A program made the position numbers and the translations under genes. Shown here piece by piece: positions 187 to 63,855 of a DNA stretch of 64,000 nucleotides. The stretch's first letter is position 1. Every line of letters begins with the position of its first letter. Location of the stretch: positions 14,101,175 through 14,165,174 of the forward strand of contig NC_058046.1 in the NCBI RefSeq assembly GCF_020085105.1, given 5' to 3'. The DNA comes from Siniperca chuatsi (lineage: Eukaryota > Chordata > Actinopteri > Centrarchiformes > Sinipercidae). The notes beneath the pieces were generated by a model. That model was given only the letters and a program-made list of their open reading frames with translations, ran no database searches and was not told the DNA's origin.

Positions 187-3136
187 GCTTTGGGGAGCAT
201 GTACTTCATCCACAAGACACTGAAAAACATCTATCAGTATGATTTTAATGGTAAAAACTTTACTCCTTACGCATTACGTTTGCATTAATTTGTATCATTT
301 TATTGAATGTTGGCTGGTGATGGATTCATATTGCTTTTTTCCTTGAAAAAAATGTGATGATTTTAGATCTGAACATAAACCACTCCCCTTGCATCCTGTG
401 CTGTTTTGGTAATGGCTCATAATGGCTCATACCTTCAATGAAGTAAAAGCAATGTTGCATATGATTGCCAAGATTCTTGTCATTTTTTAATATCAGGAAT
501 TTCAGGTAATTTCTCTGTGTATAATGACAGCTTGATGGCCAACCCTCCTAGCCAGATATTTGCAAAGAACCTGAATTTAAAATGGAGCTGTTATTTTCCT
601 GCTGCATAGTCCAGTCACGTTAGGTGTGAAAAAGCTCCTCAGAAAAGCTTATGGAAGAACCATAAACATCCTGCAGCTGCCACTCGCTGTGTGGCCCAAA
701 CCGATTGTTGTTCACCAAACACAGTCTAATGGCTCGCTTATAGATCCTCTCATCACATATGCCACTCTGATGAGGTTAACACCAGTTTATTGATTGTTGT
801 TTGCATGTTTTCTCACTCTTTTTCATGTCACACCTCCCCACCCCACCCCCCCCCCCACCCCCATCCCCCACCCCCCACCTCCTCCCTCCACCCTCTACCT
901 CTCTCCCTCTCTCAGTTAAGGATTTTAAAGCAGTGTCGGGGCAGAACAAGTACATGGGCTCTCTGGATGGGGTCGCCACAGTGGAGAAAGAAAAATTCCC
1001 AAAGAATTTCTGGCCTGATGTGAGTATGTATGCATGAGTGTGCATCTGTGTATGTCTACACACTGTATGTATGTGTGTGTAGTGTGTGTATGAGTGTGCA
1101 GGTGTGGGGAGGGGTACATGACGGCCAAAGGGAGATGTTGGGACAAATGAGTCTACTGGGTCTATAAGGGCTGTCTGCTTGCTCTGACAGGGAGATGAGA
1201 CAAATTATGTGAAAGAATCAATAATTATCAGTTTGGCCCTTCAAAGACACGACTCACTGCTGTTTAGTGACTCACTCTAATTTGTCTCTGTTGCAGTTCA
1301 AGTGGTCCAGAAAGGGCTTCATGAGGACCCGCTGGATCATACACAACCAGTACGTACTGCACACTAACCTCACCTTGATTAAAAAAAAAGTCAGGGTTGG
1401 GCTCAACTCACTTTCACTTTTGGTTGTTTGTTGACTTTTGTGAAATGCAGTTATTAGAATTGTCCTGATAACTCCCACTTTTAGAACAAAACTAGCAAAA
1501 TTCTTGTGATTCCCTTGATACATTGATACAAAGACACCCTGGTTTCATAGAATAGCTGTCTCTGAAGTTCTCCAAAATGAGAAACAAAAGAAAGTCTGTC
1601 ACACCCTCAGAGGAGGGTTGGGTATCACTAGAAAATTTTCAGTTCTAGTGCCGATACAATACTTAAATACTCAAATATACTATCACCTTTATTGGACAGA
1701 GTGACGTGAAGAGGCAGACAGGAAATGTGGGGGGCATGTCGTTGTAACCATTCGGCTACCAAGGCGCTCCATTAATTGACTCAATACTTTGAAATATATG
1801 AATTAGTTTTTCCACAAAACCATTTTTTATAATTTAAAGCAGCATTTTATTCATATATTTGTATTAACAGTGGATCACATGACTACTTATATGTGACAGG
1901 GGTCACTCTTAGTGACGAATCCACAGATAATTACCACCCGTTTTTAAGCGAAAAAGCTCTAAAAACCCACTGTACGCTACCTGCTCAGCACCAAACAGCC
2001 GGCAGACAAAGTTAGCGACTAGCTAATGAACAATGTGGAGCATCTAGCAACTAAAGAGGCAGGTATATCCCTCAAGAGTTTGTGGAAATCAAAACAGAGC
2101 TAAAAAGAGAGTTAATATTGGACTTAAATTTATCAAGTCACCAGAAACAGGACTCCAAATGAAAGAGCTAATGTTGCTTTGTATCTCCTGGATGTGTAAA
2201 TAAGCAACTGTTAACTGCTAACAAGTTCATTATATCAACTTAACTAGGTGATAATATGCAAATGCTGTGTGCAGCTTGTTTCCGTTGCCCGTGAGAGGCC
2301 AAAAATCAGTTAATGCTGGTTTAACACAAAAGTTCAAATGTTAAATGTTCTCTAAATACAAGCAGCCGAAGAAGAACTTCACCCAATTAAATAGTCTAAA
2401 ATTGGCAAAATTATGATGTAATCAGTAAATATCTGACCAGACATCAGATGCCTAGTTTTGACAGTTTTCACATTTTGGTTGGTACAAAACAAATACTGAG
2501 GTATGATACCCAACCCTTCCTCGGAGTTGTTTGAGCTCTCGCCACATTCAGAAACAATTGCTCACTGCTGCTGACAGTGGCACAAACTCATACCTTCTGT
2601 TTTCTCATCACCCCAATCACTATTAGCTAGTTTTATGAAAAACCTTGAAATTATTAATTTAGTTTGGCGACTAAACAAATAATTACCAGATATTTTACAT
2701 TTATACTCAGCCTGGTGCCTTGGTGCCGACCCAGGCCATATGTGAACAAATTTTTATTTAATTAGCAAAGAATGTATATTTATGATCTATGTTTTGAATC
2801 CACTTTATTGAATAGCCCTGAAACCAACCAGGATAAATCACACAGGGCTGCTACAGCTGTGTTTTCTGAGAACTTTAGTCACTATTTGCTCTGCTGTGTT
2901 GCTACTGGGGGGTAATAACAAAAGGAGCCCACAATCTGTGTGCCACAACATCGCGCTGTGAGTCAACACAGCTCGTGGTTGGATGCACATTAATTGTTTT
3001 CCAGTGACAGCCAACGAAAAGGAGTGAGTGCTCGGCACAAAAGACAAATGTGCTTGTTTGTGGACTCAGCATTAACACAAGTGCGGTCATTGATAAGAAA
3101 GCTCCTCATAAGTGACACCCGTGTTGGCACACACGC

Positions 3137-3202
<66 letters not shown>

Positions 3203-5827
3203 ATCAGATGTCCGGTTTTGGTGTTATCAGATTGTTTCCTGTTTTTTCACCTGCCACATATCACCATATTTTGTGTGTGTGTGTGTGTGTCTTCACAGAG
3301 GACTGGACTTGGTCAATGTCCACCTGTTCCATGATGCCTCCAACCTCATTGCCTGCAACTCCAGTCCTTCCATTTATTCAGCCAACCGCAAAAACGCTCT
3401 CAGATATGTCATCAACAGGTCAGATTTCTAGCTGCACACAACTATGAAAAACACGACTGTAAAATGTAGAAGATGACAGCAAATACACACTGAGTCCAAA
3501 GCAAAAAAACAATAATTGAAAACTCCTTGCTTGACTGAATGACCTCTACGAATGGAGTATGTTTCTTACAGTCTTGGCTAATATCATCTGCCATCATAAT
3601 GCCTTTCTTATCTTGTAAACAGTATATTTCAGGAATTTACATAAACTCTGACCTCTGAAACAGTGAGGTTTAATAGAGATAAAGACCCAAACATCCAAAC
3701 ATCTATATGATTCCTGACAATGCTACTTCCCTCCAGGATATCAGACAGCCACTACACTCCTCTGCCTTTCTTCCTGTTTGGAGATTTCAACTTCCGTCTG
3801 GACACACTTAGTCTTGTCCAGGTATGTAACAACTTTCATTTCTCCTGAAGCTCATGTGACAGGTTTGTGTATCTGCCTGGCATTTTGACATAGACCCTTC
3901 CCTGTGTTTGTGTTTTTGTGAGCAGCATCTGTCCACTTCGGCAGATATGCAGACAGTGAAGAAGGACAGCAGTAATGAAGTGGAGAAAATCATCTGCGAA
4001 GAAAAAGACAACGACCACCAGGTGATTAAAACCTGTTCAGTTAAGACAACAACTGACATTTTATTTTTAGTGCTGCTTTCACTTAACTTGCCTTCACTTC
4101 ACCTGCAGGTGCTCCTCCACATTGAGGAGAAGCTGTTTACCTATCTGCACCAGGCAGTTTTCAGGGAGGACAATGGCAGAGCAGTGAGTACACAATTTCA
4201 ACTTTCACCTAGACTGATCACTTCAGCTACACCACAGTTCCAGAGAAACTCTGTGCTGTGACTATTACTTATAATACAACAGGCTGCTTAGCAACAATCT
4301 GACATTTCTTCGCAGATTTTAGATTAGATCCTGTCAGCGTAAATAGAGTCCTATGAATGACAGGACAGTAAATACAAAAGCTCGGAGTTAAACAGAACTG
4401 CGATAAGTAAACTGGGTTTTCACTCGTGCTGAAGTTACACTCACTCACTTCATGCTTGTTTGTAATATGTTGAGATTTCCTGTAATCAGTAATGGCCTCT
4501 ATCCCTCAGCTTTTGAAATATGACAAAGAAGTCGCAGCCTTTCATGATGTTATAAGGGAAGAGGACATCAAGTTTCCACCCAGGTAAGATGTGTAACTGA
4601 GCTACTTGCTGCAAACATAGTGTATGAACTCCCACCTCTGTTGTTATCCCTTAAATGCACTGTCTCTCTCTGTCTCTTAGCTACCCCTACAGTGAAGAGT
4701 ACACTAAACCGACCCAGTACATGAACACTCGCTGTCCTGCCTGGTGTGATCGTATCCTCATGTCACACACAGCCCAAGAATTAATCCACAAGGTCAGTCA
4801 GTGCTTAAAATCATTGTATCTAAATCTGAAATGCATAACTTTCTGCATGTTAGCTGTCTTTACACTTCCACACAAAGTGCAGAATGTAATCTCTGGTAAA
4901 AAGCTTATATATACACAGAGTTTAATACAAGATTGCAACTTCTTGATAGGTTGTTGTCAGATAAGGCTAAGTGGCTAGTGGACCTTTCTAACACCATTGT
5001 CCAAACAATATTTACATTCTCACATGGCTAGAGAGTTTATTACAAGATTAATGTCATTTAGCTTAAAAGCTAACCAAAGGTTATATTATTAGCTAGTACA
5101 TTACCTGTCCAAATTAAGCTTCAACATCTTTAAATCCCTTATCTTTCTTTTGAAATAATATTTACCCTTGTTTTGACCACTTTCTCTCACTTTGCCTTTT
5201 TGGCTTTTTTTGCTGCCTCAGATAGGGTGCAGGAGATTGCATCGCAGTCAGCACTGACCGTTTGCTAAGCCCCGCACCCCTTAGTTACTGTTGCTATGCC
5301 TGTCAAGCTTCACGTTCTTGCACAGCACGCATTCAGTTTACAATAACAATAATATGTGCTACCATACTGAAGTGTGTTATCTGCTATTAGCATTGTGCTG
5401 TTGATTTCAATGTGTGAAAAAAATTGTGGAAAACATGTCACTTCCTGTATAATGGCTGTGGTTTGAACAGAATTTTTTGTAGTCCTATCCGGGAAAATGT
5501 GCCAGTCTCTTGACCATGCAGATGACATTTTAACTAAAAGAAATTATAGATGTAAGCTTTAATGTTGAATGTCACATTTTCATATTTGCTTTTTTACTTG
5601 TCTACTAGATGATATAAAAGTTCATTCTTCTTTTCAGAGAGATGATGGTGAGAAGAGCGTTGTTTATGACACAGTGGGCCCTAATATCTGTATGGGAGAC
5701 CATAAGGTAACAGTTTAAATAGCATGTATATTATGCAGGCAAACAAACCAGCCATGTAGAGTAACTGTGGTGTGTTTTCTTGTAGCCGGTTTTCTTGTTC
5801 TTCTCACTGAAGACAAACGAACATTGA
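187..5827 (+). CDS. INPP5A-like inositol 1,4,5-trisphosphate 5-phosphatase (5' end outside window)
   Basis: Type I 5-phosphatases remove the 5-phosphate of Ins(1,4,5)P3 and Ins(1,3,4,5)P4 and so end calcium signals. Eleven phase-compatible exons are seen: 187-250, 916-1019, 1297-1349, 3299-3418, 3737-3821, 3926-4021, 4109-4183, 4510-4583, 4681-4792, 5638-5706, 5786-5827. They give 297 residues; about 100 N-terminal residues of a usual ~410 lie off the left edge. Visible motifs (numbered within this fragment) are NVHLFHDASN, the metal/phosphate motif FGDFNFR (128-134), the RCPAWCDRIL motif (241-250) and GDHKPVF (281-287), so the enzyme should be active. The protein ends PVFLFFSLKTNEH and stops at 5825-5827, without the C-terminal CAAX box by which human INPP5A is farnesylated. 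Divergence from INPP5A (about half to two thirds identical by eye) and the neighbour nkx6.3 suggest an INPP5A paralogue, not INPP5A itself. Family certain; exact orthology inferred. Confidence 0.93.
834..915 (+). repeat. C-rich polypyrimidine tract before a 3' splice site
   Basis: About 80 bases of almost pure C/T with long C runs, interrupted by single A residues, end at the acceptor CAG at 913-915. The opposite strand carries many G runs of four or more and could form G-quadruplexes. It serves as an unusually long polypyrimidine tract for the exon at 916. Confidence 0.75.
1613..2518. mobile_element. hAT-like non-autonomous DNA transposon (906 bp) in intron
   Basis: The ends read GAGGGTTGGGTATC and, inverted, AAGGGTTGGGTATC. 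They are flanked by 8-bp direct repeats CCTCAGAG (1605-1612) and CCTCGGAG (2519-2526), matching at 7 of 8 bases. Eight-base duplications and AGGGTTGGG-type ends fit the hAT superfamily. No transposase frame is present. It carries a reverse-oriented tRNA-SINE remnant near 1685-1775. Confidence 0.7.
1685..1775 (-). mobile_element. Degenerate tRNA-derived SINE fragment inside the hAT-like element
   Basis: On the minus strand it begins with a box-A-like GGTAGCCGAATGGTTAC and ends with a TTTCCTGTCTGCCTCTT stretch and CAATAAAGG tail. This is the layout of tRNA-head SINEs found throughout percomorph genomes. It is short and diverged, so the family is not named. Confidence 0.5.
3129..3200. repeat. 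(CA)n microsatellite
   Basis: About 35 CA units in the intron upstream of the exon at 3299, with a few G interruptions at its left end. A (TG)9 tract lies about 70 bases further on, so the transcript could fold the two together. Confidence 0.95.
3272..3290. repeat. (TG)n tract next to a 3' splice site
   Basis: Nine TG units end eight bases before the acceptor CTTCACAG of the exon at 3299. It replaces most of a normal polypyrimidine tract. Confidence 0.9.
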
Positions 5828-6550
5828 CTCGGATCCTTCACAATGGTAAGCACATGTGCTAGTGAGCGCGTTTCTATACTGTACAGCGTGTGGAAGTGTA
5901 TATGTGTCCATGTGGTGATTCCAGAGGGGGGATTCAATGTGTGAGAGCGATCACAGTAATCTTGCTCTGCTCCCCAGAGAGCCGTAAGCCAGGCTGGCCC
6001 ATTGGAGTCGGGATATGAACTAAGATGAAGTGCCTGCGGGACACGAGCGCTCCTTTGTGTCCAGCATAGTAGAACCACAGGCGATCAGCACCTTTCACTG
6101 ATCTATGTCTATTGAATCCTCTCCACTGTCACTGTGGCTACACACTAAGTGCATTGCAGGCCCGCTTTTCATTAATTACCATCTTGATGGTCGGCTGGAG
6201 AGACATGCATTGTGCCAGACAGCATATTGGCATTTTTACGGCCATGATTTTGTTTTGCTGCCGTTAAAATTTTATTTTTTAAGGATAGACTGCTTTTTCA
6301 TGAGGGTGCTTCTTCAGAGGGCTGCAAAATGATGAGATCCACACAGTGAAGATGCTACAACCAGCTCACTTTTCCTTTTGTTTTTGACATTTTGAGACAC
6401 AGACCAAGTTCATTCCAGTACGGCAGTAACTGTATTTCTCATGCCACATTTTGCAGTAGGCATTTTACATTTTTTGTATGTTGATGCATGTTGATTGATA
6501 AGCACTTTTTTATGAATGTAACATTTTACATCTTAAATTTAAATTAAATA

Positions 6551-7915
6551 CAGGGCTCAACAATATGGATTGCCCGATTGCCTGGGGCAAGTAAAATGGC
6601 ACTTTGGGCAAGTAAATCAAGCAACTCACTTGCCCGATCTGGCAAGTGGTAAAAAAGAATTAAACATATGTATTTTTCCGGAGCTGATAATGGATCTAGC
6701 TTTCTCTGTTGAGAGTTACACATACTGATTGTGCACTCACGAGTAGGGATGGATACTGAAGCACGGTATTAAACAGGCCCAGGGGCTAAATAATTAAAGA
6801 CCGTAGTCTTATCACACTCGCTGCAGCCTCTCCTGCTGTCTGTGTCAGGCTGAGCTCCTCCACACACACACTCACAAATGTAGCGCAGCGGTCAGCAGAT
6901 CAGACAGGCCGTGGTGGAGATTACTAGAGTTGACATCAACTACGCTCGTTACTTTAAGTAAGTGCATTAAATCCTCCGCGAGTAAAAAGCAATACTTTTA
7001 TCAATACACCTGTTCAACAAGCACGTCATGTAGAAAGCAATATTTTAATCTGCTCTGTCTGCAGTCTCTCATGTTTCACACAAGCACAGTGCGCTAGCTC
7101 GGCTTATAGCGCATTGTTACAAACAAGCCAAAATGAAGCTGTCAGTATGTAGTCTAACAGTTTATCTTAGTTTGCCACGAATCTTAAAATTTGGCAAATT
7201 CTTGTAAACTTACTGCTGGCTTAGACAAACAAGCCCCTCCTCCCTCTACCAGCTAACTTATCTGCAGTGAATCACAGCAGCAGCAGAGGGAGGAGGACAG
7301 AGGACAGGAGGAAGGACTGATACTGACTGATGTTCAGATAGAATAAAGAACACAGACATCACTCAATATTTTGATGTCAGGAATAGGATTTATTTTATTA
7401 TTGAGTTTATATAGTGACTTTGCTGTTGTAAACACTGTTGCTGCTTTAAAAAAAATATAACATTTAAAATATTCAATTCTAATCATGTAATGAATTTACA
7501 CTTTTACAAAAATATATTTTTTAAAAAGCAGTTATTTAGTAATGAAAAAGAACTGATACTAGTATCAATAAAGAACCAATAAGAGAGTTGATAAGAATAG
7601 TAGTATCAATAAAATCCTAACAATACCCATCCCTACTCATGAGAAAATGGCAGCGGGTAAAGACAAAGATAATTTAGATAATTTATCACTCACTCTCAGT
7701 TAAGGAGTCCATCTCTAGATAGGAGGGGGATTGTCATACCATTTTCGATATGCAAGAATGTTTGTTGCTTTGCATCTATGACACGCTGTGTCCTTGTTCT
7801 GATTAATTTACTTTATTTATAACAATTAAATATGACTTTAGTTTTTGTTGTTATTTGATAACCGCTAATAAATAAAACAATTTGTACAGAGGCAAGTAAA
7901 ATTTGACTTTGGGAT
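6551..7915. repeat. Interspersed repeat interrupted by a younger transposon
   Basis: Two related direct segments, at 6584-6616 (GGGGCAAGTAAAATGGCACT followed by TTGGGCAAG) and 7891-7913 (GGCAAGTAAAATTTGACTTT followed by GGG), bracket about 1.3 kb. Between them lies a complete hAT-like element (6744-7635). The outer sequence looks like an older interspersed repeat or duplicated fragment. I cannot assign its class. Confidence 0.45.
6744..7635. mobile_element. hAT-like non-autonomous DNA transposon (892 bp), nested
   Basis: Terminal inverted repeats start TAGGGATGGATACTG on the left and TAGGGATGGGTATTG (reverse complement) on the right. The 8-bp target duplications are CTCACGAG (6736-6743) and CTCATGAG (7636-7643), 7 of 8 identical. 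The size and ends resemble the element at 1613-2518, but the sequences are not the same. No transposase frame is seen. Confidence 0.78.
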
Positions 7916-8051
7916 TTCTGAGGTGTTCTTGTTTGCTTTGAAAGGCTTCCAATGGCCTTTGTATTAATAGTGTCAGATAATATGGTCCCCGTCAGCAATG
8001 TGATCTATTTCTCATTCCTACGCTTTTGTTTCTGTTGGCACGTGATGTATG

Positions 8052-8052
<1 letters not shown>

Positions 8053-8097
<45 letters not shown>
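8053..8097. repeat. (TG)n microsatellite
   Basis: About 22 TG units directly upstream of the CTGCAG acceptor at 8101-8106. It acts as the whole upstream tract of that putative splice site. Confidence 0.95.
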
Positions 8098-8098
<1 letters not shown>

Positions 8099-8106
8099 TG
8101 CTGCAG

Positions 8107-10290
8107 GTCTATGACTGCACCATCCTCAGAGCTCTGCCACAGTATCAGTACCAGAGGTTAATCAGCATGATGGTTACCTGCCACAACCCACCCATCAGCC
8201 AGCTGCGGGTCTTGACACAGTTAGTCCCCACTGTTAAAACCCCGTCCTCACATCACTGGTGTCTCACATCTGATCTCACTGTTTCATACTGTCGACCACA
8301 GCTGGAGTGACACGAGCACAGATTTTTTAGCCGCTGTCATGGATTTCTGAGGCAGTTGTCCAGATTCTCCAACTCGCTCTCAGATCTTAAGTCCCCTGAC
8401 CTGAAACCTCAGTGTCACTGAGGATGTTCCTGTTTTTTGAACGTCCCCGAACAATGACGTAAAGACTGCAGTGTGTGACTGTGGACCAGCCCCTTGGACC
8501 AGCCCCCACATGGATGGGTACATGCATATGCAAAGTTTTGATTAGAGTGATTTTAATTGTTGCATTTTAAAATATATGCCTTTTTTACCAGCAGTGTCAG
8601 ATAACCCCAGACCAAGGCATCACAAATGTACTCATTCCTTATTTAATTTATGAAATCTCTCCAGTCAGTCAGGCCACTTTGTAGCAACTGAACTGGATAG
8701 CTTCCACTCAGTCAGTTTTAAATTAGCAGTTGAATTCAGCCAATCAGAATCCAGTATTGTGAAACTCCAGTGTAAATAACTTCTAGCTAAACATTATGAA
8801 GAACATTAGTGTTATTATAAACCACAGTGAATGTAAAGACAAAAAATATGGGATCTTTAATATCAAGTTTTGGACCAGGCCTACTGACTGTGTGCATGCT
8901 ATTTTGTATTTTATGAAATTTTTTGTTCAGGTATTTATACTTAAATACTTTTTAAAGTTGTTTACTGTCAGGGTAAGCAGGATATTTTAAACACAGGGAA
9001 ACACAGTAGAGGAATGCTGCTATTCTGTTCATTATTCATGAATGATTTCTTACTGACATGTTATTGTTTTTCATACATGTAGCTACTTCATCACAGTGGC
9101 TTTAACTATGTCACGTCTCTTGATTACAGAACAAAATCTATTATAGAATTGATTTTGATAAATGTAAATGACGATTTTAATATCGAAATGATGTAGAAAA
9201 GACACTAGACAGTGGACAAAAGGCCAATAACATTTTAAAGCAACAACAAACCGACTGCAGCAGTTTTGTCTGTTTATGAATGCTGTGGTAGATGCTGAAT
9301 TAATTCATATAACACAGCAGCAGAGTGTTTCACCCTGTTGAATTTAAAGTAGCATTCTTTTGCTGTTTTTTCCATGTACCAATAATAATACCAAGTGCTT
9401 TATTCCACAAGCTATAACTCAGCAGTTCTCCATGTTTCAGTTTCCTCACTCAGAAAGTTCCCTTTACAGTTTGTCTGCACAGAAATCTCTTCCACCCTGT
9501 TCTGGTTGGCATCGACCTTATTTCATTGCCAAAAGAATTATACTGTAGGCCTCACATGTTTACTTCTAACTCTAGTTAATGAGTGTGGGTGTTTCCATCA
9601 CATGGCTTCACTTGAAGTCCACAAAATCCTGTATATATACAGTATATGCACACATGTGCACACCTACACACAAACAGAAGGTTTGCTTTTGGATGTTTGT
9701 CTTATTTTATTTTGTTGATTCATAATCTCATACTTTAGCTGTGTAATATTTTTGATGTGAGTTATTGGTTAGATTCTTTGATCTGGCTTTAATAATGACT
9801 AATTGAAAGAATTTAAAATATGTTTTTGTGGTTTTTTACTTCCATCCATCCATCCATTAACCATACCCGCTTAGGGTCGCGGGGTCGGCTGGAGCCAATT
9901 CCCGGCTGACGTTTATCATATATATTTTTGGAGTGTTTTGTGAAATGTCTTTTGTGTTACACAGCTTGGTGGAACAGTACACCCCCTATATTCATACAAT
10001 AACACTTTTCATGCATAAATTCACAGATATTCATATTAAGGACTGTCAGTCATATCTGTACTGTGGGACTGAAGCCTTGCCATAACAAGATGAAGTTAAG
10101 AATCAGTGATGCAAATGTCTGTGTGGATTGAGAACAGTTTGTAAGTAATAAACTTTAAGCGGTTCACTGTTGACCAGTCATGGGAGTGGAGTTCATTCTA
10201 AGGCCAGTATTACCTTCAGATTAACTCTGGTCAAACACTACATCATTGTGATATTTCACTTTTGTAAATAAAATATTAACCTCTTAAACA
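8107..10290 (+). other. Probable noncoding last exon / 3'UTR of the INPP5A-like gene
   Basis: The stop codon of the phosphatase is followed 18 bases later by a good donor (GTAAGC at 5846). The next convincing acceptor is CTGCAG at 8101-8106, preceded by a ~45-base TG tract. A polyadenylation signal AATAAA lies at 10267-10272. A stop this close to the last junction would not trigger nonsense-mediated decay. No long open frame fits as coding extension. Alternatively transcripts may end unspliced after 5827, and the exon may be a chance match. Confidence 0.4.
9840..9911. mobile_element. Short copy of a CATCCATCC-type teleost interspersed repeat
   Basis: A run of CCAT units is followed by a segment reading TACCCGCTTAGGGTCGCGGGG and a GGCTGGAGCCAATTCCCGGCTGAC segment. 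This signature recurs widely in teleost genomes, probably as a retrotransposon tail. Only about 70 bases remain. Confidence 0.55.
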
Positions 10291-12700
10291 TGTTGCATTG
10301 TTTCTTATTGGCTCCACCAGCACTGCATATACAGTTATTTGGCAACACATTTAGGGGATTTTGAGACTGACAGCTCAGGCTTTTGGGAACAACAGTCATC
10401 CCTTTACAGTATTTGAGTCACACCTGTTTGGGGAAATGCTACAAGTGAAAGACATCTACAATCTCATTGACCTTATTTCCCTCATGAAGCCGATAAACCT
10501 GAAAACCTACGTGCCACAGACTGTGCACGCTTCCAAGTGCTGCTGCCTTTCCGGCTTTAGCTGTTACTAGGAAAAGAGATGTGAAACTTAACAGACGTGG
10601 CATTTATATTGATACGAAGAATGCAAAATGGTGTTTGTGTTGGTAAGATGAAGAAATATAGACCAGAGTCCTGCAAAATGGACGTTGAGCCTGCAGTAAC
10701 TTAACCCAAGGTGTATATTACTAAATGTCTGTGTTAAGCATTCAGTTTTCATAGTTAGTAGAATTCAGCCGCAAGGTGAACTGCACTTATTTTGTGGCAG
10801 AAGAAAAATTACATCTAAAACAGAGGGGGTATTAAGCCTGCCCTCGAAAGTTGGAATGGGCTATTTAGGCCTTTTTGCTCAGATTGAAAGTCTTCAAGGG
10901 TCAACAAATCAAGCGACCGATTCTAACCTTTATTGCATTTCATTTTTGTGTTGATTCAATGGCTTGACTCAGATAAATCCTGATTTTTTTTTTAAATCAC
11001 AGATAGCAGCAGGTTGGGGGAGACTAAAACATGTATTTACCTCCTGAAAATTCATAAATCACAAAGAGTTTATAATGCTTGATCATTTTTAAATATTTGC
11101 ATGATCATAGCTCCAATATGGACTTGACATTTACATTATGATAGGATTAGCAATGTATGATACTGACATTAGCACAACTACATTGTTGACACACTCCAGT
11201 GTATTGTATTGTCTTTGATGCGAGTTATCAAAGCAGAATCTTCTCAGTAACATTCCTGGGCTTTTCCTTTGACGAATCATCCAGCCTGATGTCAGCTGCC
11301 TGAACCGTATGGAGTCTAAACTCACTGAGCCTACATGGTGAATGAGCCGGCCTGTTGGTATTGATTTCATGTTGAAGTTGGTTGTGGGGGTCATTGTCTT
11401 CAAGTAAGCCATACAACAATAGTGAATCATGCAAGATTGGACCTTTGACCTTTGCACTTCTCGTCAGCATTTGTGCCTTTTTTGCTCGCAGTTTCATTTT
11501 AACTGTCATTTGGCAGCAAACACACAGACGGAACTTGAGCCTTTGCAGCCAAATAATGTTATGGTTAAGTTAGATTTTTCATTTAAAAGCAGACACCAAG
11601 TACCACCAAGTTTGATAAATGATTCATAATAATTTATTGTGCAACATTTCAGGTGTTTTCTTACATTGTCCACCTTAATATTAATACAATGTATTTCAAA
11701 AACAAGTATACAAATAATGAAAAACAAAGCTGTCAACTTGCAGTTATTTTAACCAACCTCAAGTCAGCATTCAATTTAAGCATTTAGCAGAATTACAAAT
11801 CATACTGTGGAACATTATAATAGATGAGCAGAGCCTGATTATCTATAGATGTTTCCATTACCTTTTAACACACACTTCTTTCTCTGCACTGTTTTCATAT
11901 AAATAAAAATGTAGGCTTTTCCTGCCTTTTTCAGAGTTTGTAGCTCTGTGATTCATCAGCACACAAACCCATATACTGTACATCATAACAGAACGTCTCA
12001 TTTGTAACAAGAATGTTAAATAATCCTATTTTATTTAAAAGCCCTAGAAATAGCTGAATCTGAAATTACTTTACCTGCAGATTTATCAGTTTTTTGATTT
12101 TAGAATTCATTTTTTGAAGTTTTGATTGAAGGACATTTCAATTTTTTTCTTATACCTTGAGACTGTAAAACATTTGTTTTTACCTTTGACGTTTGAAATT
12201 ATATTGAATATATTGATGGCTTAAGAAAGTTTCATAAAGTTATCTTACTGTATGGCATGGCACTTTCATAACAGTTTCATTTTGAAAGTCAAATAAGCAC
12301 AACATAATCACAAACCGCTTTAACTATTAAAAAAAGAACACCAATAATTTCATTACTCTCTTTTTTTATTTATTATTATTAGGCCTACCAATAGCATCAT
12401 GCAGTTGTGGGTTGTTGTTGTTTGTTTGTTTTTTTCCATTTTCTTCTGTCTTTACAAAACGATGTGTATGACATAATTCCCCCACATACCAGTGTAACAT
12501 TAAACAGAGACATTTCTTACAGTAGGCTAACTTATAAAACTAAGCGTCTTTTTAGCTTCATTATTTCAGCCTATTTGTCTATTGAACCCTTTGGTGCTCA
12601 TTTGTTGGATGACCACAAATGACCTCTTCTGAACATGCTTAAATGCTCATTGATTAAACTTTGTATTCAAAACTAATTGCTTTCATTACAGCATGCAGGT
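10291..12700. other. Intergenic DNA between the tail-to-tail genes
   Basis: AT-rich sequence with no convincing coding frame. Candidate minus-strand polyadenylation signals for nkx6.3 (TTTATT read on the plus strand) lie at 12365-12370 and 11633-11638. The first would give a 3'UTR of about 390 bases, the second about 1.1 kb. Nothing else is recognised. Confidence 0.6.
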
Positions 12701-12713
12701 CTGCTGAGAAGCT

Positions 12714-12741
12714 TGTGTGTGTGTGTGTGTGTGTGTGTGTG
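12714..12741. repeat. (GT)n microsatellite in the nkx6.3 3'UTR
   Basis: Fourteen GT units on the plus strand. In the nkx6.3 mRNA this is a (CA)n tract starting about a dozen bases after the stop codon at 12753-12755. Confidence 0.95.
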
Positions 12742-12752
12742 CATGAAGTTTG

Positions 12753-14428
12753 TTAGACTTGGTGTGGCCCGAGGCGCAGGACGGAGAAAGCCCTGCGGTG
12801 TTTACGCAGCAGCAGCCGGATCTTATCGTCGTCAGAGTCGGGGTCCAGAGGCTTGTTGTACTCCTCGTCCTCCACCTCGTTCTCCGAGGCCTCCCCGCTC
12901 GGCACCGCGTGGCTGGCCTGCGTGGAGCTCGGCTCCGAGGCGCTCTTCTTCCTCCACTTAGTGCGTCGGTTCTGAAACCACACCTAAATACAACGGGGGG
13001 GGGTTACTCTCTGTGAGTGTGACTGACTCGCGACGATGAATGAACTTGTATCTTGTATTGCTCAACAGGTGCCAACCATTTTCCATTAAGGAAGTAGACT
13101 AGCTGTTTGCGTGGGAAGTAACCTGTTGTTGGTTCTCTTGGCCTCCTTGTGTGATACTGGCACATTGTTACACACTTGTAAGTAATTAAGTAAGTAAACT
13201 TAAATTCTTTTGCACTGTTCAAAACAAAAGTTACAAGTTACTTAACAGGTGCACCTAAAACCAAACATAGAGACATTCAACTAAATATAAAAAGAACAAC
13301 ATAAAACCATTGGAGTAATACGTTTTAAAGCCACCTTATAAGTTGTAAGGCACCTCACACAAAAGCAGCATTTTAACAGCTTTGATGTAAATGTGCTGTT
13401 CTCTTTACCTTGACCTGTGATTCAGTCATGCCCAGAGAATAAGCCAGTCTTGCTCTCTCAGGCCCAGCCAAGTACTTGGTCTGCTCGAATGTTTTCTCCA
13501 GAGCAAATATCTGATGTCCACTAAATGTTGGTCTGGTGTGTTTCTTCCTGCCTGACATCTCCCCAGAGGTCCGCTACCTGGAAACATGGGGGCAGCATCA
13601 TCCACATATATTCATAAAAGTGACATTCTATGAATATTTGATTGGACGTTTGAAATGCCACATATACTGTCAACCCCCACTAATTCTTGTTTTTGTATTT
13701 TCTTTTAGATTATATCCCTTAAAATGTACATTTACACTAAACACCTAAAATATTAATAACATGTTGAATAGTATTTTATATAATCTAAACATTACTCAGT
13801 TTTTCAGAACAATACAAAAGGTCAGTTTTTGAAGTTACTGTATATACTGTATATTTCTGTTATCAGTTATTAGATTGAATTTGTGTTTTTCAGTAAAGAT
13901 GAATGACATTCTAGCATCACTAAAAGGTCACACGTCTTGTTGAGTCCTCAGAGACAGACACAGGGAAGTTGATGCGCTGGATGTTGAGTCCAGTCTGCAG
14001 TATTTAGACTCACTGTTGGTGCATTGCTGCCTCCCTCCTCTCCAGTCACAGCCGCTCTCCGCCCAGCAGCTCACACTGCGACCCTTCATGGGGCACTCGG
14101 CACCTGGCTTGGAGAAGCCGCCCAGGTTGGAGTTGTAGTCTCGGTTATAGTACATGGACGTGCTGGTGACGGAGGGGCCAAACCCTCCCATTGTGGAGTA
14201 TCCGGACAGCAGGGTGGTGGTGCCCGTGGAGCCCATTCCCACCATGGAGCGGCTCAGGATGTCGCTGATGCCGTGAGGGGTCCCTGCCTGCAGCTGGCTG
14301 TTGAGGCCCGGGTTGAGCTTGTAGAAAGAGTTGGGCACTGAATACTGGCACACCGGTGCCTTGAGGTCCGATGGGAATTGGTTCAGGCTGTTGTTGAACA
14401 GGAAAGACCCCTGGATGTTTGGATCCAT
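12753..14428 (-). CDS. nkx6.3: NK6 homeobox 3 transcription factor
   Basis: Homeodomain repressor used in vertebrate gut endoderm and hindbrain patterning. Minus-strand exons are 14428-14014, 13551-13409 and 12983-12753, giving about 262 residues against 265 in human NKX6-3. The N-terminus ([14 protein letters not shown]...[17 protein letters not shown]) matches NKX6-3 and not the longer NKX6-1/6-2 forms. An eh1/TN-type motif GISDILSR lies at 53-60; the Groucho-binding role is known for the family. The homeodomain (about 139-198) contains [21 protein letters not shown] and [12 protein letters not shown], with the usual intron between SQVK and VWFQ. The C-terminal [22 protein letters not shown] block is family-specific. 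The intron 1 acceptor is uncertain: only the one ending at 13552 keeps frame with the strong donor after 14014, and it shortens the linker before the homeodomain. Confidence 0.94.
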
Positions 14429-17552: not shown

Positions 17553-19992
17553 ATGGTGAAGGAGAGTGGCAACGAGAACTCTGGTGAGATATTTATTCTT
17601 GGTTTTCAGTCTTTACAGAGAACTTGCTTTACAATACTGCTTTAAATGTCTATAAGATCCTGTTAACCACAATTTGTCAAGTTACATTTAGGTAGCCACT
17701 ATATATGAAGTTAATACAATTTTACAGTTTAGTAACAAATGTTTTTTAATGTTGCTAATTTTAACAGTGGTTTAACATCTAACAGTTTTTAGTAAATGTC
17801 GACAAAACAGATGCTTTTATGACAAAGGTATATTACTTTGGTATGAAAACAGCTATTATAGCTCCGTTTTTTTAATGGACAATAAAAACATATCTATTTT
17901 CCTAATTTTGTCCAGAGCTACTGAACGCCACTGTTCTGTCCATTGAGAACGTGACCATTGTTTTTAAAAATCTGATTAGGTGTTAATCAGTGTTTTAGAC
18001 CAGATGATTAGCACATGAGGAAGAAGACTTGGCAATAAATAGGAGGAAGAAAGGATTTATGACCAGTGCGTAAAGTGTGAAATAAGGGAGATGAGAGATA
18101 ACTAGAAACTAGGTTTTACTGGAAATGCTCAGCTGGTCACTGATGAGTAAAAGGCTTCACATACAGCAAGTAGTTGCTACACGTGTGAGTCACACCTGCA
18201 ATCTAAATCTTCACGGGATGGCTAGTGGGTTATCATTTACTGCACCTTGTCCTTTGACAAATTAACAAATGCTTTGATTAAATTCAGTGTTCACTTTAAT
18301 GAGTAACCTTTGCATGAATGAAACACCTTCACCAGTTCCTCAAAAGTGAAAACACAAGTGTCTGCTACTTGAACTATTACTTGATTACAATTTTATCTGC
18401 TGTTATAGCTATAAAATCTCCGTCGGAATCTGTATTGCTGCAGTAAAGCAAAACATTAACTGGCATCCGGTTAGATTAAAGAAGAAACATTGGCGATGTG
18501 GTCATAATGAAACTGTTTGAGTTTATTAGAATTAATTATCTATGATTTAAATAATGGAATCATACAACCAATTTTCATTAGTAACATTAAACGTAAAAGG
18601 AGAAATTAATTAATAATAAGAGGAAAATTCTCCATGTTATTATTCACTTCTTATAGTCCAAAATGAGTACAGTGCAATGTATTGTTTACTACACTGTATT
18701 CAGGTGGCGGATGCAAAACTTCCCAGCTTGTTGTTGTCTGTGACACATGCACATTTTTTGCAGATGTAATCTACATGCTTGGACCGAAAAGGAATTCACT
18801 GTATGCATGGCTTGCACATCAAGATTCATAACTGTGTTTTTGTTCCTTTGCAGTTGCTGGGTCAGAGATGTCACACAGGTGCGGCCGGTCCTGCCTCGGT
18901 CCTCTGACCTTCCACTGTCAGTCGGTGGGAGACATGGTCCGCCTGAGCCAGGGGTGTCTACTCGCAGAGAGGAGGGAGGACACGTTCAGGAACGGCCTGG
19001 TGTTCAGCAGCCGCCCAGTGAAGGTCCAGGAGAGGATTCGTCTGAGGGTGGAGAAAGATTTGTTTAATTGGCACGGAGCTCTGCGCGTGGGCTTCACCAA
19101 CGTGCCGCCCTCAGCCAGATCTCTGCCTCTGCCCCAAATGGCCATCCCCAACCTCACTGACCTCCCCGGGCACTGGGCTGCTCCCCTGCATGAATCCTAC
19201 TGCCAATCAGGTTCAGAGCTGGAGTTCTGGGTTTCCTGTGGAGGCACCATATACGTCACAAGCAACAACATCAGGCAGCACAAGCTACTAACGGGAGTGG
19301 ATCTCCGCCAGCCGCTGTGGGCCATGATAGACATCTACGGTCAGACGTGCTCCATTTTCCTCCTGGGTATGTTTACTATTAAATAACAATGACGTGTTGT
19401 TGGCCGTACTGCCTGTTTTTCTTGTTCTTATTTATTTGTTGACAATGCCAAGTAATTGTGTGAATGGATAAATAGATGAAATGCCTCTACTCGTTGCTGC
19501 AGGCTCAGAGAAAAGGGGGCTGTTTTGCACCAGAAGGTCCTGTCCAGCACCTGAACGCCTCACCTTACCTAATGTTGACAACCACTTCAGTTTGATTCCT
19601 GACGCGTCGAGCCTCTATGGAAACAGCGAGGAACGCATCTCATGTCTTGACACGGAAGTCCCAGGAGGTAAGAAAGAGTCCCTTCAACGAAATACTGATA
19701 CCTGATGTCAGACCAGAGAGCAGGAGGATGTAATCAGTGAAATCAGCTGTTTGCGTTGATTTAAAACATAGCACACGTTTGCCTATCTCTGATGTCACTC
19801 TCTGTTTTGATCACAGGTGAAGGCAGAGTAATGGACTGTGTGGTGTGCATGGTTAAAGAGGCCAGAATCACTCTGCCTTGTGACCACAGGTGTTTGTGTA
19901 ACCACTGCGCCTCCAGGGTCTTCCAGCAGTTTGGCACCTGTCCGCTGTGTCGACAGGAGATCAGAGCTCCATGTGTCACTGGGACTCTTTAA
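17553..19992 (+). CDS. neurl3: Neuralized-domain RING E3 ubiquitin ligase, NEURL3-like
   Basis: A single NHR domain plus a C-terminal RING points to a ubiquitin ligase of the NEURL3/LINCR type; NEURL1 has two NHR domains. Exons are 17553-17583, 18854-19366, 19503-19667 and 19817-19992, all phase-compatible, giving 294 residues (human NEURL3: 262). The NHR domain spans about 28-180, with conserved blocks GLVFSSRPVKVQERIRLRVE, GALRVGFTNVPP and LWAMIDIYGQTCSIFLLG. A low-conservation linker (182-236) follows. The RING at 244-285 reads C-x2-C (244, 247), then PCDH (258, 260), C264, C267 and CPLC (278-281), as in Neuralized proteins. The first exon is tiny (10 codons); its start context AAGATGG is good. 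A polyadenylation signal lies at 20537-20542. NHR domains bind targets or lipids; the substrate here is unknown. Confidence 0.88.
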
Positions 19993-32510: not shown

Positions 32511-35500
32511 GTAAAGCCATTTTTATTGACATTTCCAACTGTTTACGAAATGCCATTGTCTTAAATATTTAAATCCACAAAATCCAGGAAAAACTCTCAT
32601 GAGTGTCACACAAGTCAGACCAGTGTCACAACAACATGCCTTTGGTACGGATAAGAGTTCTACCGTTACCATGAAGCACAGGGGCTTTCCCATGACCCCC
32701 AGCAACCACAGAGGGGACCAAAGCACCTGATTCATTCATTCCTATAGAAGAGCTAGACTGGCCATCATGGGTGGGCGGAGTAAAAAGATCACTATGGAGA
32801 CCACAAGACCACTGCTAGCCCTGCTGGACTTTGAGGTTGACATCAACGGCCCCTTCCCAACCTCTCTGGCCCCAGCTCCACCCACTGGCTGGAGAATAGG
32901 GAGGCCTGGTGAATAGGGAGTTAATGGGCTCATAATGGTCCTCTCCTGTTTCAGTGCCCCCACTCTGTACCTTGAATGAGGCCTTTCTGCAGTTGTGGCA
33001 AGAGAGATGATGAAGTGGGTGGAACACCACTTTCCACTGGTCCTGCTTTAAATAAATTAGGGGCCTTTTCATCGGAGGCTCCCCTACAGAGGCTAGTCTC
33101 TGGAGAATAGCTGGGCCGCTAACAAGTTCACATGACCTCCCACAGAGAGCGGTGTTTACCCAGGCCAACAGGAGAACATGACAGGAGCAAAGTTCACACA
33201 TTGTTCATCCATATTTCTCATTTCCTCTATGTTTAGCAACGTGCAGAAGTGGTTGGCGATCCAAATGGCTCCCAGATTACCTTTTCCAGGGAGCCTGGAG
33301 TTTCCTCTGGTCAGCAGATCCTAACATCTCCAGAGTTGACCCATGAGGTGGTTATCTCCCCGGGACTCCCTACGCCTCCCCTGAGCCCTTTTCGCTCCGC
33401 AGGGCTCCCATTTGGAGAGTTCAAGGTATGCACAGTAATGTCCTGGAGGCTGTGTTAATAACAATGCTGAGGTGGAGTGCGTGGAATTCAGTAAACAAGT
33501 GCTCCTCCCTGTGGAAAAATGATGCATCACAGGCTATACATTCAGCCATGGACATGTTTTGAAACCGTCACGTTGCAGTTGTCATTTACATTACACTGAG
33601 ATGCTTGTATTACTGATATACATATATAATTCTGCCCTTCTCAAGGTGTCAGAGGTGAATGGAAGTGGACCAACAACTCTCAGCTTTGGATCTTACTATG
33701 GCCCCTCACAATTGCATGGTAAGGTTATGATTTTTAAATCTGTGCATCACATGAGTGCCTTGCTGTACAGTCAAAATAAAATTTCAGGAAATAAATATTA
33801 ATTTAGTGGGATTTTAAATAAGCGAAGATGTCATAAGTGTATAACTTTGCATTTAATGTTTGTTATGGGAATGTAAGGTTGGAAACAATTGCTTGAAAAG
33901 GCAATATTTACGTGTGCTCGCTGCTGAAATTATGCTGTTTAGAAATAGTAGTAAAATAGTTTTAGTTGAAGTGGCAGTCAAAATACAAATGCTGCAAGAA
34001 GCTGAAGTAACAGTTAAAATGTAAGCACTGAAAGAAGTTGAATTTTAAGTTTAAGCGCAATCTCTGGATGAAATCCTAGTATCAGAAGTTGGTTTACACA
34101 TACAAGGAATTTTCTTTGGTGTTATGGTGCAAAACAATAAACATAGTAAGTAGAAAAATATAAATAAAGATAGCAAGCAAGTACTGTGAGTCAAAAGTCA
34201 AGTAGTAAATATAAAATAGACAATAAGATATGAAAAATATTGTAAAAATAATAAAGAATCAGTTGAAATGAAAGTGCTGAGAGGAGTTGGAGCACTGAAA
34301 GGAGATGAAATGTCAGGTGAACTGCATATGATAAATTGAGCTACAAGTGTCAGAAATGAATGCCAGTTCAAGTGTATAAACTGAAGAAGGTGTCAGTTAA
34401 GTGTCAGCTGATGTGTAAGCACTGAAAGCAGTTTCAGTAAATTGTGTATGAACAGAAGAAGTTGTGGGAGTTAGAAGAGCTGAAGAAGTTTTCTTTTGTT
34501 TGAAACCTGAGACCTGAAAGGATTTGAAATGTAAGTTTTGAAAGAAGTTAAAATGTTAGTTGAAAAGAAAGAGATGACTTTCATACAGTTGAAATGTCAG
34601 CTGACGTGTAAGTGGTACACAATAGCTTGAACTTATCTGGGTTTCATGTGATGTGGTAGGGTTTAAAATCAGATGAATGTTTGTATACTTCACCTGAAAT
34701 CAACTGAAATCAATAATTGATCAGAACAACATAATAACAGAAATCTTACTGTTGTGACTGTAACTCAGGCGGACTGTCCAATGGCGTCCAGAGCTCTGCC
34801 ACTTTACCACGCAGCTGGACTCCCACCAAGGAGGAGAGGCTTATCAAGTTCTCAGGAATCGGTCCAGTGGATGAAACCGGGATGCCCATTGCCTCCAGAT
34901 CAGTAAGACAAAGAAGCAGAATGTACTGTTTGATAATCAAACACTAGCTTTACATTTGATTGATTTATCTATTTATTTTTTGCATATATTCAAACAAACA
35001 ACAACAAACATGCGTTCTATGTTGATTTGAGCTGACATTTTTATGTTCTTGCTGCATCCAATGTGCTTTATTTCTCAAAGTCGAATTGACCAGATTTGTT
35101 TACCTTATGCACCCTACCTTCTTTTCTTATACCAGAGTGTGAACAAGCCCAGAGACTGGTACAAGAGCATGTTCAGACAGATTCACAAGAAGCTAGAGGG
35201 TAAGGACGCGCCTCCTCCTCCTCCTCCTCCTCCTCCTCCTCTTCTTCTTACAAACATAACATCAGAGCATTCCTCTCTGTCAGTGTCAGGTACTACAAAG
35301 TTGATCCAGCAAACAGATTATTGCAGAGGCAAAATAAGACATGATGAAAGAACCTTAAAGTCTTATGTCATTTGTGTTTATTAGCTCTGACAATAATCCA
35401 GCTTCTTATCTCAGCCCCCCCTAAATCTAGCTGTTCATTTGTCTCCATTACATGTTGCGTAATAGAAAAACATTCCCTGTTATTTGTGTGGTTAATGGCA

Positions 35501-38500
35501 CCACTGCAGCACTGAGGTGGTTTTAGAGGATTGCTTTGGATCAGTTTTAGAGAAATATTTTCAACTCTCTGCAAGTGATTTATCTTCTTAAACAATATTT
35601 GATTTCAAAGCACTGAGGAGTACTGCTACAATGCAACTCAACTGAGGTGCTTCTGATGATCTTTGGTGGACCAAAAACAGGATTTCTACATTTCTGAGAG
35701 AAACTTTTTTCTCTACATTTATTTGGCAGCTGTTCAAGTTACTTTGTTTAAAAATCATATGTACAAAACATATGATCAGCTTATATTAATGGTGACTTTT
35801 TATAGTCTAAACTTTCAAACGGTATTTAATGGAGTTAAAATTGGCTCCACCTTGACCAACTACAACATTAAAAGGCTGCTTATACATTAATACATCAGTA
35901 AAAATAATCAAATGATATATTATAGATAATATACAACACTCTGAAAGGGTCCATTCTGCATAATGAGTATTTTTACTTTTGCTACTTTATTTATACTACT
36001 GTATTTTTCATGAGTACAATTTTGAATGCAGGACATTTACTTGTATCAGAGAACGTTTACACTGTGGAATTACTACTTTTCCTAAAGTAAAGGATCTAAA
36101 ACACTCCTTCCCACACTGGTATTGTAAGAGTTGGCTTACTGTAAGACAAATCCAGCCATATTGTAAGGGAGTATGAAAAAGAAATGTATAAGTATTATAT
36201 TTGATTGATTTATCTATATAAAGTACTCCAGTATCTAAAAAGTCTCTTTATTGTACTTGTTTCCCAAGAACCTGATCTGGAGGATTCAGAGCAGTGGTCA
36301 GCCGAACGTAAGTGAATCTACCAAAGTCCACATTGTTGTCCTGTCCAGTTATATAATGAGTTTTTACTTAAGACTGATCTGCACTGATCCTCTAATCTGC
36401 AGGGCTCCAGTTATCTGCCAACACAGAGGAAAGTAATGAAGCAGACAAGAATCTCTTCAGACTAACACCTTATGGAGCTCTACCAGACTGGTGAGTTTAC
36501 ACTGGTTTGATGTAATTGCCTCAGGGTCACGGGGTGGCTTAGCATATCGTAGCATGCAGTGGAAAGAAGACAGCCAAACTGCCAGTCCATTACATACAGA
36601 CAGATTTATAATCACTCACTTTCATACCTTTGGGCAATTTAATAAAGTCTTGAGTCAACCTGAAGTGCATGTTTTTTCACTGGGGTAAGAAAATTAAACC
36701 CAGGGGCCCACAGCATACACATGCACACAGGAAGGCCCAAATCAAACTTAAAAGAATAGTTTGACATTTTGAGAAGTATGTTTACTTGTTTTCTTGCTGA
36801 GAGATAGACTGATACCACTCTCGCCTCTTGACTCTAGTCTAAATATGTAGCTACACCCAGCAGCCAGTTAGCTTAGCTTAGCACATAGACTGGAAACATG
36901 GGGAAACAGCTAGCCTGGCTTTGCTCAGTAGCTTCTTGGAATATCTGCTGGCAACCTCATGGTGACAAAAAGGGTTAAACAAATGAGATATAACGTGTTA
37001 ATTAGTGAGCTTTGGAGGTGGTTTTTGATACCTTTGGACAGAGCCAGACAAGCTGTTTCCCCCTGTTTCCAGTCTTTGTGCTAAGCTAAGCTAACCCTTT
37101 CCTGGCTTGCTTCATATTTAGCCGACAGATACGAGAGTGGTATCGAGCTTACTCTTGGCAAGAAAGCGAATAAGCATATTTCCCAAAACCTCAAACCACT
37201 AAAGATACAATAAATTAAATAATTTCATCTGCAAATTCAGCTACTGAAATACAGTATTTTAAATGTTTAGCAAGAGAGGAGATTTAACAGTCTACTGATC
37301 TTTATGTATGCTCTTTTGATTTTGATTATTTTTAATCAAGTAGTAGACTACTAGTAGTAGAATACACACCCATATGAATTTATTCTTCACATCAGATAAA
37401 CACTGCAGGCAGGTGACGTCTTATGTGAATACCAACCAAAATTCAGGCCAAGAGCAGTGGAGGGAAAACGTGTGGGACCAGACAAGTTTGGATTTGTTGC
37501 TACAGGCACTCACAATGAAGCCATGATTAAGTTGCTGTCCGTGGTGTGTGTGTCTGTGTGTGTGTTGGGGTGTTATGTTTCAGGAGTGAGGATGTAGACA
37601 AGCTGTCAGACGCAGGAAAGCAGCACCCTCAACCGAAGAGCATATTCGACTTTGAGCCTGGAAAGAGCACTGCCTCAGAAAGCCACAGCCAGGTAGAACC
37701 TCACATGCAGTCACAGTTTAAAAATAGGCAGTGATACCACTCTGATTCCAGCAGAAAAAATGTTTCTGCATGATTCTTTAACCTCTAGATTTATCCAGCA
37801 TTGTTGTTATCTCTAATAACTGGAATTCTTTGTGTAGTCTTGCACTGTTTTCCCAGTGTGGGGCTTAAGAACAGGTTTGAGGATGGGCACCTTTTCTTTA
37901 AGGATTATAGTCTAAGTCCTCATATTTCATGTTCTCACGCGAGGTAACTTGTGAGTGTGGTCATTCTACATTGTACCTGCTGCTTACCAGCAGATGTGCT
38001 CACTTCTTCTTTTATTCAGAGGATCTAACAGGCTTCCAGCTTTCATTCATTTAGCTTTTCAGACAAGAAAAGATTTGATCTAAGTATTTATGTTGGTGTT
38101 TCTATCTGGTTTTGTACCGAATGTCAGTATTTACAAGCTAGTGACACTTTGACTCACTTTGACATTTATTTACCACTAGGGTTATAATTTATTGTCTTGT
38201 GTAATCTGCACTGTTCAGGAGCTGTTGCTATTGAGTGTGCAGCCTTTTGTATGTGTCTCTGTGTTTAAACACCCTGGGTGAGTTACACAGCGGTGTCTCT
38301 AAGGTTTTTTTTTTAATGGCTCTTGCAACAATGTCCCAGATCTGGTGCATATTGTGCCTTGTGTCTGCGCTTGTGAAGAAAAGGAATGTTTGTTTCCTCT
38401 CCCCCACAGGAGCTGAGGTGTCTTGTGATCTGTATTATGGCGTTAACTGCTTGTGGTGTATAATGGCTCACAGCATGGAGACTTATTTAATTTCCTCTTT

Positions 38501-63775: not shown

Positions 63776-63855
<80 letters not shown>

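What the first reader, a model, noticed from the sequence alone, without database searches (positions are those of the whole stretch)
187..14428. INPP5A-like gene tail-to-tail with nkx6.3: an ohnologous copy of the INPP5A-NKX6-2 pair
The sequence shows an INPP5A-family gene on + and an NKX6-3 gene on -, ending toward each other. In human the same arrangement is INPP5A and NKX6-2. NKX6-2 and NKX6-3 are genome-duplication paralogues, so the phosphatase here is probably the INPP5A ohnolog of the NKX6-3 branch. I recall no INPP5A-like gene beside human NKX6-3, so it may be lost in mammals.
Basis: partly seen in the sequence, partly recalled or inferred. Interest (0 to 1): 0.7.

Follow-up and report, generated by a model that had tools for sequence, protein, structure and literature searches.

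The report
Second INPP5A-type gene beside nkx6.3
A fish-like genome carries, next to the nkx6.3 gene, an intact-looking relative of the calcium-signal-ending enzyme INPP5A, probably an ancient whole-genome-duplication twin, whose end lacks the lipid-anchor signal that holds human INPP5A on membranes.

Summary
On + there are 11 exons (187-5827), in phase with AG/GT junctions, encoding the last 297 residues of an INPP5A-type inositol 5-phosphatase; the 5' exons lie off the window. On -, 12753-14428, is a three-exon nkx6.3, so the genes are tail to tail. Further along are neurl3-like, sorbs3-like and pdlim2 genes. Published synteny (passages read) puts nkx6-3, sorbs3, pdlim2 and gpr124 in one block and INPP5A with NKX6-2 and ADGRA1 in human 10q26.3; another paper makes the chromosome-8 and chromosome-10 NK regions duplication sisters. 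Identity to human INPP5A recalled from memory is 168 of 297. New here: the protein ends ...GDHKPVFLFFSLKTNEH, without the CCVVQ farnesyl/palmitoyl tail, while the catalytic motifs inside the window are kept. I read it as a catalytically competent but soluble, possibly nuclear, IP3 5-phosphatase from the second vertebrate genome duplication. Confidence about 0.7 for that origin, less for the functional shift.

The parts
187..250 (+). INPP5A-like exon a (ALGSMYFIHKTLKNIYQYDFN..)
916..1019 (+). INPP5A-like exon b
1297..1349 (+). INPP5A-like exon c (KWSRKGF motif)
3299..3418 (+). INPP5A-like exon d (VNVHLFHDASNL motif)
3737..3821 (+). INPP5A-like exon e (FGDFNFRLD catalytic motif)
3926..4021 (+). 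INPP5A-like exon f
4109..4183 (+). INPP5A-like exon g
4510..4583 (+). INPP5A-like exon h
4681..4792 (+). INPP5A-like exon i (NTRCPAWCDRILMS catalytic motif)
5638..5706 (+). INPP5A-like exon j (GPNICMGDHK catalytic motif)
5786..5827 (+). INPP5A-like last coding exon, PVFLFFSLKTNEH then TGA; no CaaX tail
14014..14428 (-). nkx6.3 exon 1
13409..13551 (-). nkx6.3 exon 2 (first part of homeodomain)
   Evidence: boundaries by hand
12753..12983 (-). nkx6.3 exon 3 (end of homeodomain, C tail)
18854..19992 (+). neurl3-like gene: Neuralized domain and RING finger (syntenic context; start not defined, name inferred)
35031..45639 (+). sorbs3-like gene, part: sorbin-homology exon (35031 is the start of the open frame, not of the exon) and three SH3 domains, ending ..[11 protein letters not shown] (syntenic context)
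57105..62916 (+). pdlim2, four 5' exons including the PDZ domain (syntenic context; gene continues)

Best explanation
The phosphatase is a second-round (2R) vertebrate whole-genome-duplication paralogue of INPP5A. An ancestral NKX6-INPP5A tail-to-tail pair was duplicated with its chromosome. One copy became NKX6-2/INPP5A (human 10q26.3), the other nkx6.3/INPP5A-like, kept in this lineage. It most likely still removes the 5-phosphate of soluble Ins(1,4,5)P3 and so damps calcium release. Because its C terminus lacks the cysteine pair and CaaX box, it should not be farnesylated or palmitoylated. It should therefore work in the cytosol or nucleoplasm rather than at the plasma membrane and ER. Shown: gene structure, motifs within the window, tail, neighbours. 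Inferred: 2R origin, activity, location.
For: Spliced frame without a stop and 5-phosphatase domain. Motifs FGDFNFRLD, NTRCPAWCDRILMS and GDHK present. 168 of 297 residues identical to recalled human INPP5A, gap-free up to the tail; the recalled letters agree with the published C408, C409 and Q412. Neighbour fits NKX6-3 better than NKX6-2 by recalled human sequences. NKX6-2 and INPP5A listed together on the flank of CFAP46 in birds (PMC10445033) and in 10q26.3 with ADGRA1 (PMC12453924). nkx6-3, sorbs3, pdlim2 and gpr124 among the common loci of one block across vertebrates (PMC6233590). Chromosome-8 and chromosome-10 NK paralogons as sisters at the second duplication (PMC2446394). PDLIM a full quartet as expected by 2R, though without the expected tree shape (PMC2453138). 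Tail: the two GTs inside the last coding exon are poor donors, and at 5707-12700 on + only 2 CaaX-like ends occur (1.6 expected from shuffles), neither credible. C409S human INPP5A leaves membranes, accumulates in nucleoplasm and strongly inhibits calcium oscillations only at the lowest agonist dose (PMC12450637 passages).
Against: No tree: my only reference INPP5A is the human one, recalled. No proof that the same genome has a separate inpp5a beside nkx6.2. No comparison with gar, shark, frog or coelacanth. About the first quarter of the protein, including further catalytic residues, is outside the window. A single genome cannot show that the tail loss is old or shared; an assembly fault at the last exon is possible. 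The main texts of PMC6233590, PMC2446394 and PMC2453138 hold no word beginning inpp5 or inpp (0 occurrences), so no published block that I saw contains this gene. Both scored SH3 domains of the sorbs gene score higher against SORBS1 (a chromosome-10 gene by recall) than against vinexin/SORBS3.
Confidence: 0.7

Rival explanations
1. It is the true INPP5A orthologue (or a teleost third-round copy of it) that was carried to the nkx6.3 locus by rearrangement or a small duplication in the fish lineage.
For: No tree excludes it; the family resemblance is clear; no second inpp5a could be looked for (9 unanswered calls to the genome search: 3, 5, 14, 27, 38, 46, 57, 61, 64).
Against: Only 168 of 297 residues match recalled human INPP5A, which looks low for an orthologue (expectation from general knowledge, not measured).
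Confidence: 0.2
2. A variant of the ohnolog reading: a 2R ohnolog on its way out, whose CaaX loss is the first sign of decay.
For: Missing lipid tail; a donor-like ATG|gtaagc at 5846, in phase, 18 nt after the stop, may be the remnant of a former junction to a tail exon.
Against: 11 of 11 exons in frame with AG/GT junctions over 894 nt, and catalytic motifs in the window kept.
Confidence: 0.15
3. Another variant of the ohnolog reading: an ordinary membrane-bound enzyme whose tail is supplied by an alternative exon that I did not recognise, or by stop readthrough.
For: Donor-like site in phase after the stop.
Against: No credible CaaX-type end at 5707-12700 on + (2 pattern hits, 1.6 expected); an alternative donor would have to lie before the stop, where the two GTs fit a donor poorly.
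Confidence: 0.1

Closest known systems
INPP5A (type I inositol 1,4,5-trisphosphate 5-phosphatase), human 10q26.3
   Same: Domain, catalytic motifs, colinear sequence (168 of 297 identical to the recalled human protein), neighbour gene of the NKX6 family
   Different: Diverged sequence; lacks the CCVVQ palmitoylation/farnesylation tail; sits beside nkx6.3, not nkx6.2
NKX6-2/INPP5A locus (10q26.3; birds, PMC10445033)
   Same: INPP5A-type gene near an NKX6 gene
   Different: Different NKX6 paralogue; flanked by neurl3-like, sorbs3-like and pdlim2 genes instead of CFAP46 and ADGRA1
Other 5-phosphatases with solved structures (OCRL, SHIP2, INPP5B, INPP5E, INPP5K)
   Same: Shared family and the PAWCDRI-type motif (best OCRL, E=7e-5)
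   Different: Only short, weak matches (9 sequences at E up to 1)

Membership tests
Inositol polyphosphate 5-phosphatase superfamily | 5-phosphatase catalytic domain with GDxNxR, PAWCDRI and DHK motifs | tested here: met
   Pfam PF22669 E=2.2e-17, 63.9 bits against cut-off 27; motifs located
INPP5A (type I) subfamily | Colinear similarity to INPP5A over the whole stretch rather than to other 5-phosphatases | tested here: met
   168/297 to recalled human INPP5A; weak short matches to OCRL, SHIP2, INPP5B, INPP5E, INPP5K. The INPP5A reference is recalled, so this is a weak test
INPP5A (type I) subfamily | C-terminal CaaX box with preceding cysteine (CCVVQ), as in the human enzyme | tested here: not met
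   Protein ends SLKTNEH; tail described in PMC12450637
One-to-one INPP5A orthologue | Tree position within INPP5A; neighbour nkx6.2 | tested here: inconclusive
   Neighbour fits nkx6.3 better than nkx6.2; no tree possible
2R ohnolog of INPP5A | Lies in a paralogous block whose genes have partners near INPP5A | tested here: met
   nkx6.3, sorbs3-like and pdlim2 in the window; published blocks. Of the window's genes only NKX6 has a partner near INPP5A in a text that I saw; the 10q positions of SORBS1, PDLIM1 and NEURL1 are recalled
2R ohnolog of INPP5A | Gene tree with duplication before the split of bony vertebrates | not testable with these tools
   No vertebrate INPP5A obtained; own genome unanswered
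NKX6-3 | NKX6 homeodomain with NKX6-3-type N and C termini | tested here: met
   176/249 to recalled NKX6-3 against 126/246 to recalled NKX6-2; homeodomain; NKX6-1 not compared

The most novel reading that the evidence does not exclude
Jawed vertebrates inherited two INPP5A-type genes from 2R; the nkx6.3-linked one survives in ray-finned fish as a lipid-anchor-free, soluble or nuclear IP3 5-phosphatase, giving a natural separation of the enzyme's catalytic and membrane-targeting roles, and was lost in mammals.
Probability: 0.4. Interest if true: 0.55.

Novelty: new member of a known kind. Interest (0 to 1): 0.38.

Why it matters
INPP5A is the only type I IP3 5-phosphatase in human (recalled) and is under study as a target in GNAQ/GNA11 uveal melanoma (PMC12450637 and PMC11848503 passages). 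A naturally untethered sister enzyme would show what the catalytic domain does without its membrane anchor, and it would add a family to the NK-homeobox chromosome-8/10 paralogon. It would also mean that fish studies of inpp5a must take a second gene into account.

Tried and rejected
PDB sequence search for INPP5A relatives: only distant 5-phosphatases, so no reference INPP5A came from a tool. Viral contigs: 19 stretches matched a pattern, 1 was reported as related (L001, 28 percent over query residues 112-194); the match lies in a 673-aa ORF that contains FLFGDFN and looks phage-like to me (no family search made), so I reject it as chance. Bacterial and archaeal genome contigs: 43 pattern matches, none related. 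Rfam at gathering thresholds: no match in the window. Pfam on open frames elsewhere in the window: of the 10 sequences (sorbs and pdlim pieces) matched and 6 gave nothing; the window was not scanned in full.

Literature, held library only. inpp5a with nkx6: 17 papers, passages of 2 opened. nkx6.3 with synteny and zebrafish: 1, passages opened. inpp5a with ohnolog: 0. inpp5a with zebrafish and paralog: 7, none opened. INPP5A/farnesyl/CAAX/5-phosphatase, 3 of 4: 50, 20 listed, passages of 2 opened. nkx6.3 with nkx6.2 and whole genome duplication: 0. Paralogon terms, 3 of 6: 37, 25 listed, passages of 3 opened. inpp5a with synten: 3, 1 opened. inpp5a with teleost: 5, 1 opened (a flounder expression study whose passage does not tell copies apart). 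inpp5a with gene duplication and vertebrate: 1, not opened. In what I saw of these no paper describes an INPP5A-like gene beside nkx6-3; genome databases may well carry it as an automatic '-like' entry, which I could not check.

Considered and dropped: reading the third frame of the last exon (it ends GKHMC and does not resemble the INPP5A tail); readthrough at the TGA (no evidence).

Full report
What is there. The left end of the window holds the 3' part of a gene on the + strand. I set 11 exons by hand and checked them with a script: the 11 acceptors are AG, the 10 donors before the last exon GT, the phases agree, and 894 nt read as 297 residues and a TGA stop. Pfam finds the endonuclease/exonuclease/phosphatase family 2 domain (E=2.2e-17). 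Solved structures give only other 5-phosphatases, 9 sequences at E up to 1, best OCRL at E=7e-5. The window protein begins at about human residue 103, so about the first quarter is not visible. On the - strand lie three exons of an NKX6 gene, start codon at 14428. With recalled human proteins it matches NKX6-3 at 176 of 249 and NKX6-2 at 126 of 246; NKX6-1 was not compared. The PDB search with it found other homeodomain proteins and no chain named NKX6 among the 60 of 100 sequences shown.

Neighbours. To the right, all on +, are a Neuralized-plus-RING gene (the name neurl3 is my inference), a gene with sorbin-homology and SH3 domains, and a PDZ gene. The PDZ domain matches PDLIM2 best among the 16 PDB sequences listed (90.5 bits for PDLIM2, next 82.5 for PDLIM4). 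The last SH3 domain scores slightly higher against SORBS1 (98.0) than against vinexin/SORBS3 (95.1), and so does the second SH3 (106.4 for a longer SORBS1 chain and 77.7 for a single-domain one, against 76.0 for vinexin); both are against my naming. For it: the final residues NYVAPV are those of vinexin and not of SORBS1 (NYVKPL), and the gene stands beside pdlim2. SORBS2 was not among the matches. I call it sorbs3-like. The rest of the window was read only by ORF lists and selected Pfam scans, so other genes may have been missed.

Origin. PMC6233590 (passages) lists sorbs3, pdlim2, gpr124 and nkx6-3 among common loci of the npm2b regions of human, mouse, alligator, frogs, coelacanth, gar and zebrafish. 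[quoted passage not shown] PMC2453138 (passages) treats PDLIM and SORB as families expanded in this time window on human 4, 5, 8/2/7 and 10; it notes that the PDLIM tree lacks the expected symmetrical shape. INPP5A is listed next to NKX6-2 on the flank of CFAP46 in birds (PMC10445033 passage) and in the same 10q26.3 interval in human, with ADGRA1 (PMC12453924 table); gpr124, which is ADGRA2 (recalled synonym), is in the nkx6-3 block. So both NKX6 loci sit in regions held to be sister paralogons and share NKX6, ADGRA and, with this window, INPP5A-type genes. I take this as good positional evidence that the window gene is the 2R twin of INPP5A. It is not a tree. That the window is from a teleost is plausible from its compact introns but was not tested.

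The tail. Human INPP5A is farnesylated on C409 and palmitoylated on C408; the C409S mutant leaves membranes, gathers in the nucleoplasm and inhibits calcium oscillations strongly only at the lowest carbachol dose (PMC12450637 passages). PMC11848503 passages also report INPP5A as farnesylated and relocalising under a farnesyltransferase inhibitor. The window protein ends PVFLFFSLKTNEH after the conserved GDHK. Inside this coding exon there are two GT dinucleotides, neither like a donor; a better donor-like site, ATG|gtaagc at 5846, lies 18 nt after the stop and in phase. Between 5707 and 12700 on +, 2 CaaX-like ends exist in the three frames, 1.6 being the mean of 200 mononucleotide shuffles; one lies in the intron before the last exon and the other follows no recognisable exon. 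The simplest reading is that a stop arose upstream of, or in place of, the lipid-tail codons. The catalytic motifs within the window are kept, so I expect a working enzyme that is not tethered. This last part is inference.

Verdict. Observation confirmed; ohnolog reading favoured by position, unproven by phylogeny; loss in mammals plausible but untested. The absent lipid tail is the most testable new point. The second and third rivals are variants of the ohnolog reading, so the confidences are not meant to add to 1. As an extra member of a well-known enzyme family in a described paralogon it is of moderate interest.

Noticed in passing
21630-21742 (+): Partial second copy of the neurl3-like Neuralized exon: 91 of 124 alignment columns identical to 19252-19375 (score 54, maximum of 100 shuffles 15). 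The open frame over it gives no Pfam match and only this part of the exon is recognisable; likely relic of a tandem duplication.
   Followed up: partly
5846 (+): Donor-like ATG|gtaagc in phase 18 nt after the INPP5A-like stop codon; either a 3' UTR intron or the remnant of a former junction to a lipid-tail exon.
   Followed up: partly
13551-13584 (-): The acceptor that looks strongest by eye for nkx6.3 exon 2 (ttccag|GTAG) is out of frame; the in-frame acceptor lies 26 nt further on, which shortens the linker before the homeodomain compared with recalled human NKX6-3.
   Followed up: partly
about 3126-3200 and about 63777-63855: Microsatellites, (CA)n in an INPP5A-like intron and (CTA)n near the right end.
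   Followed up: no
L001 1440-1658: Viral-contig match to the phosphatase looks like a chance hit on FLFGDFN inside a 673-aa ORF that looks phage-like.
   Followed up: partly
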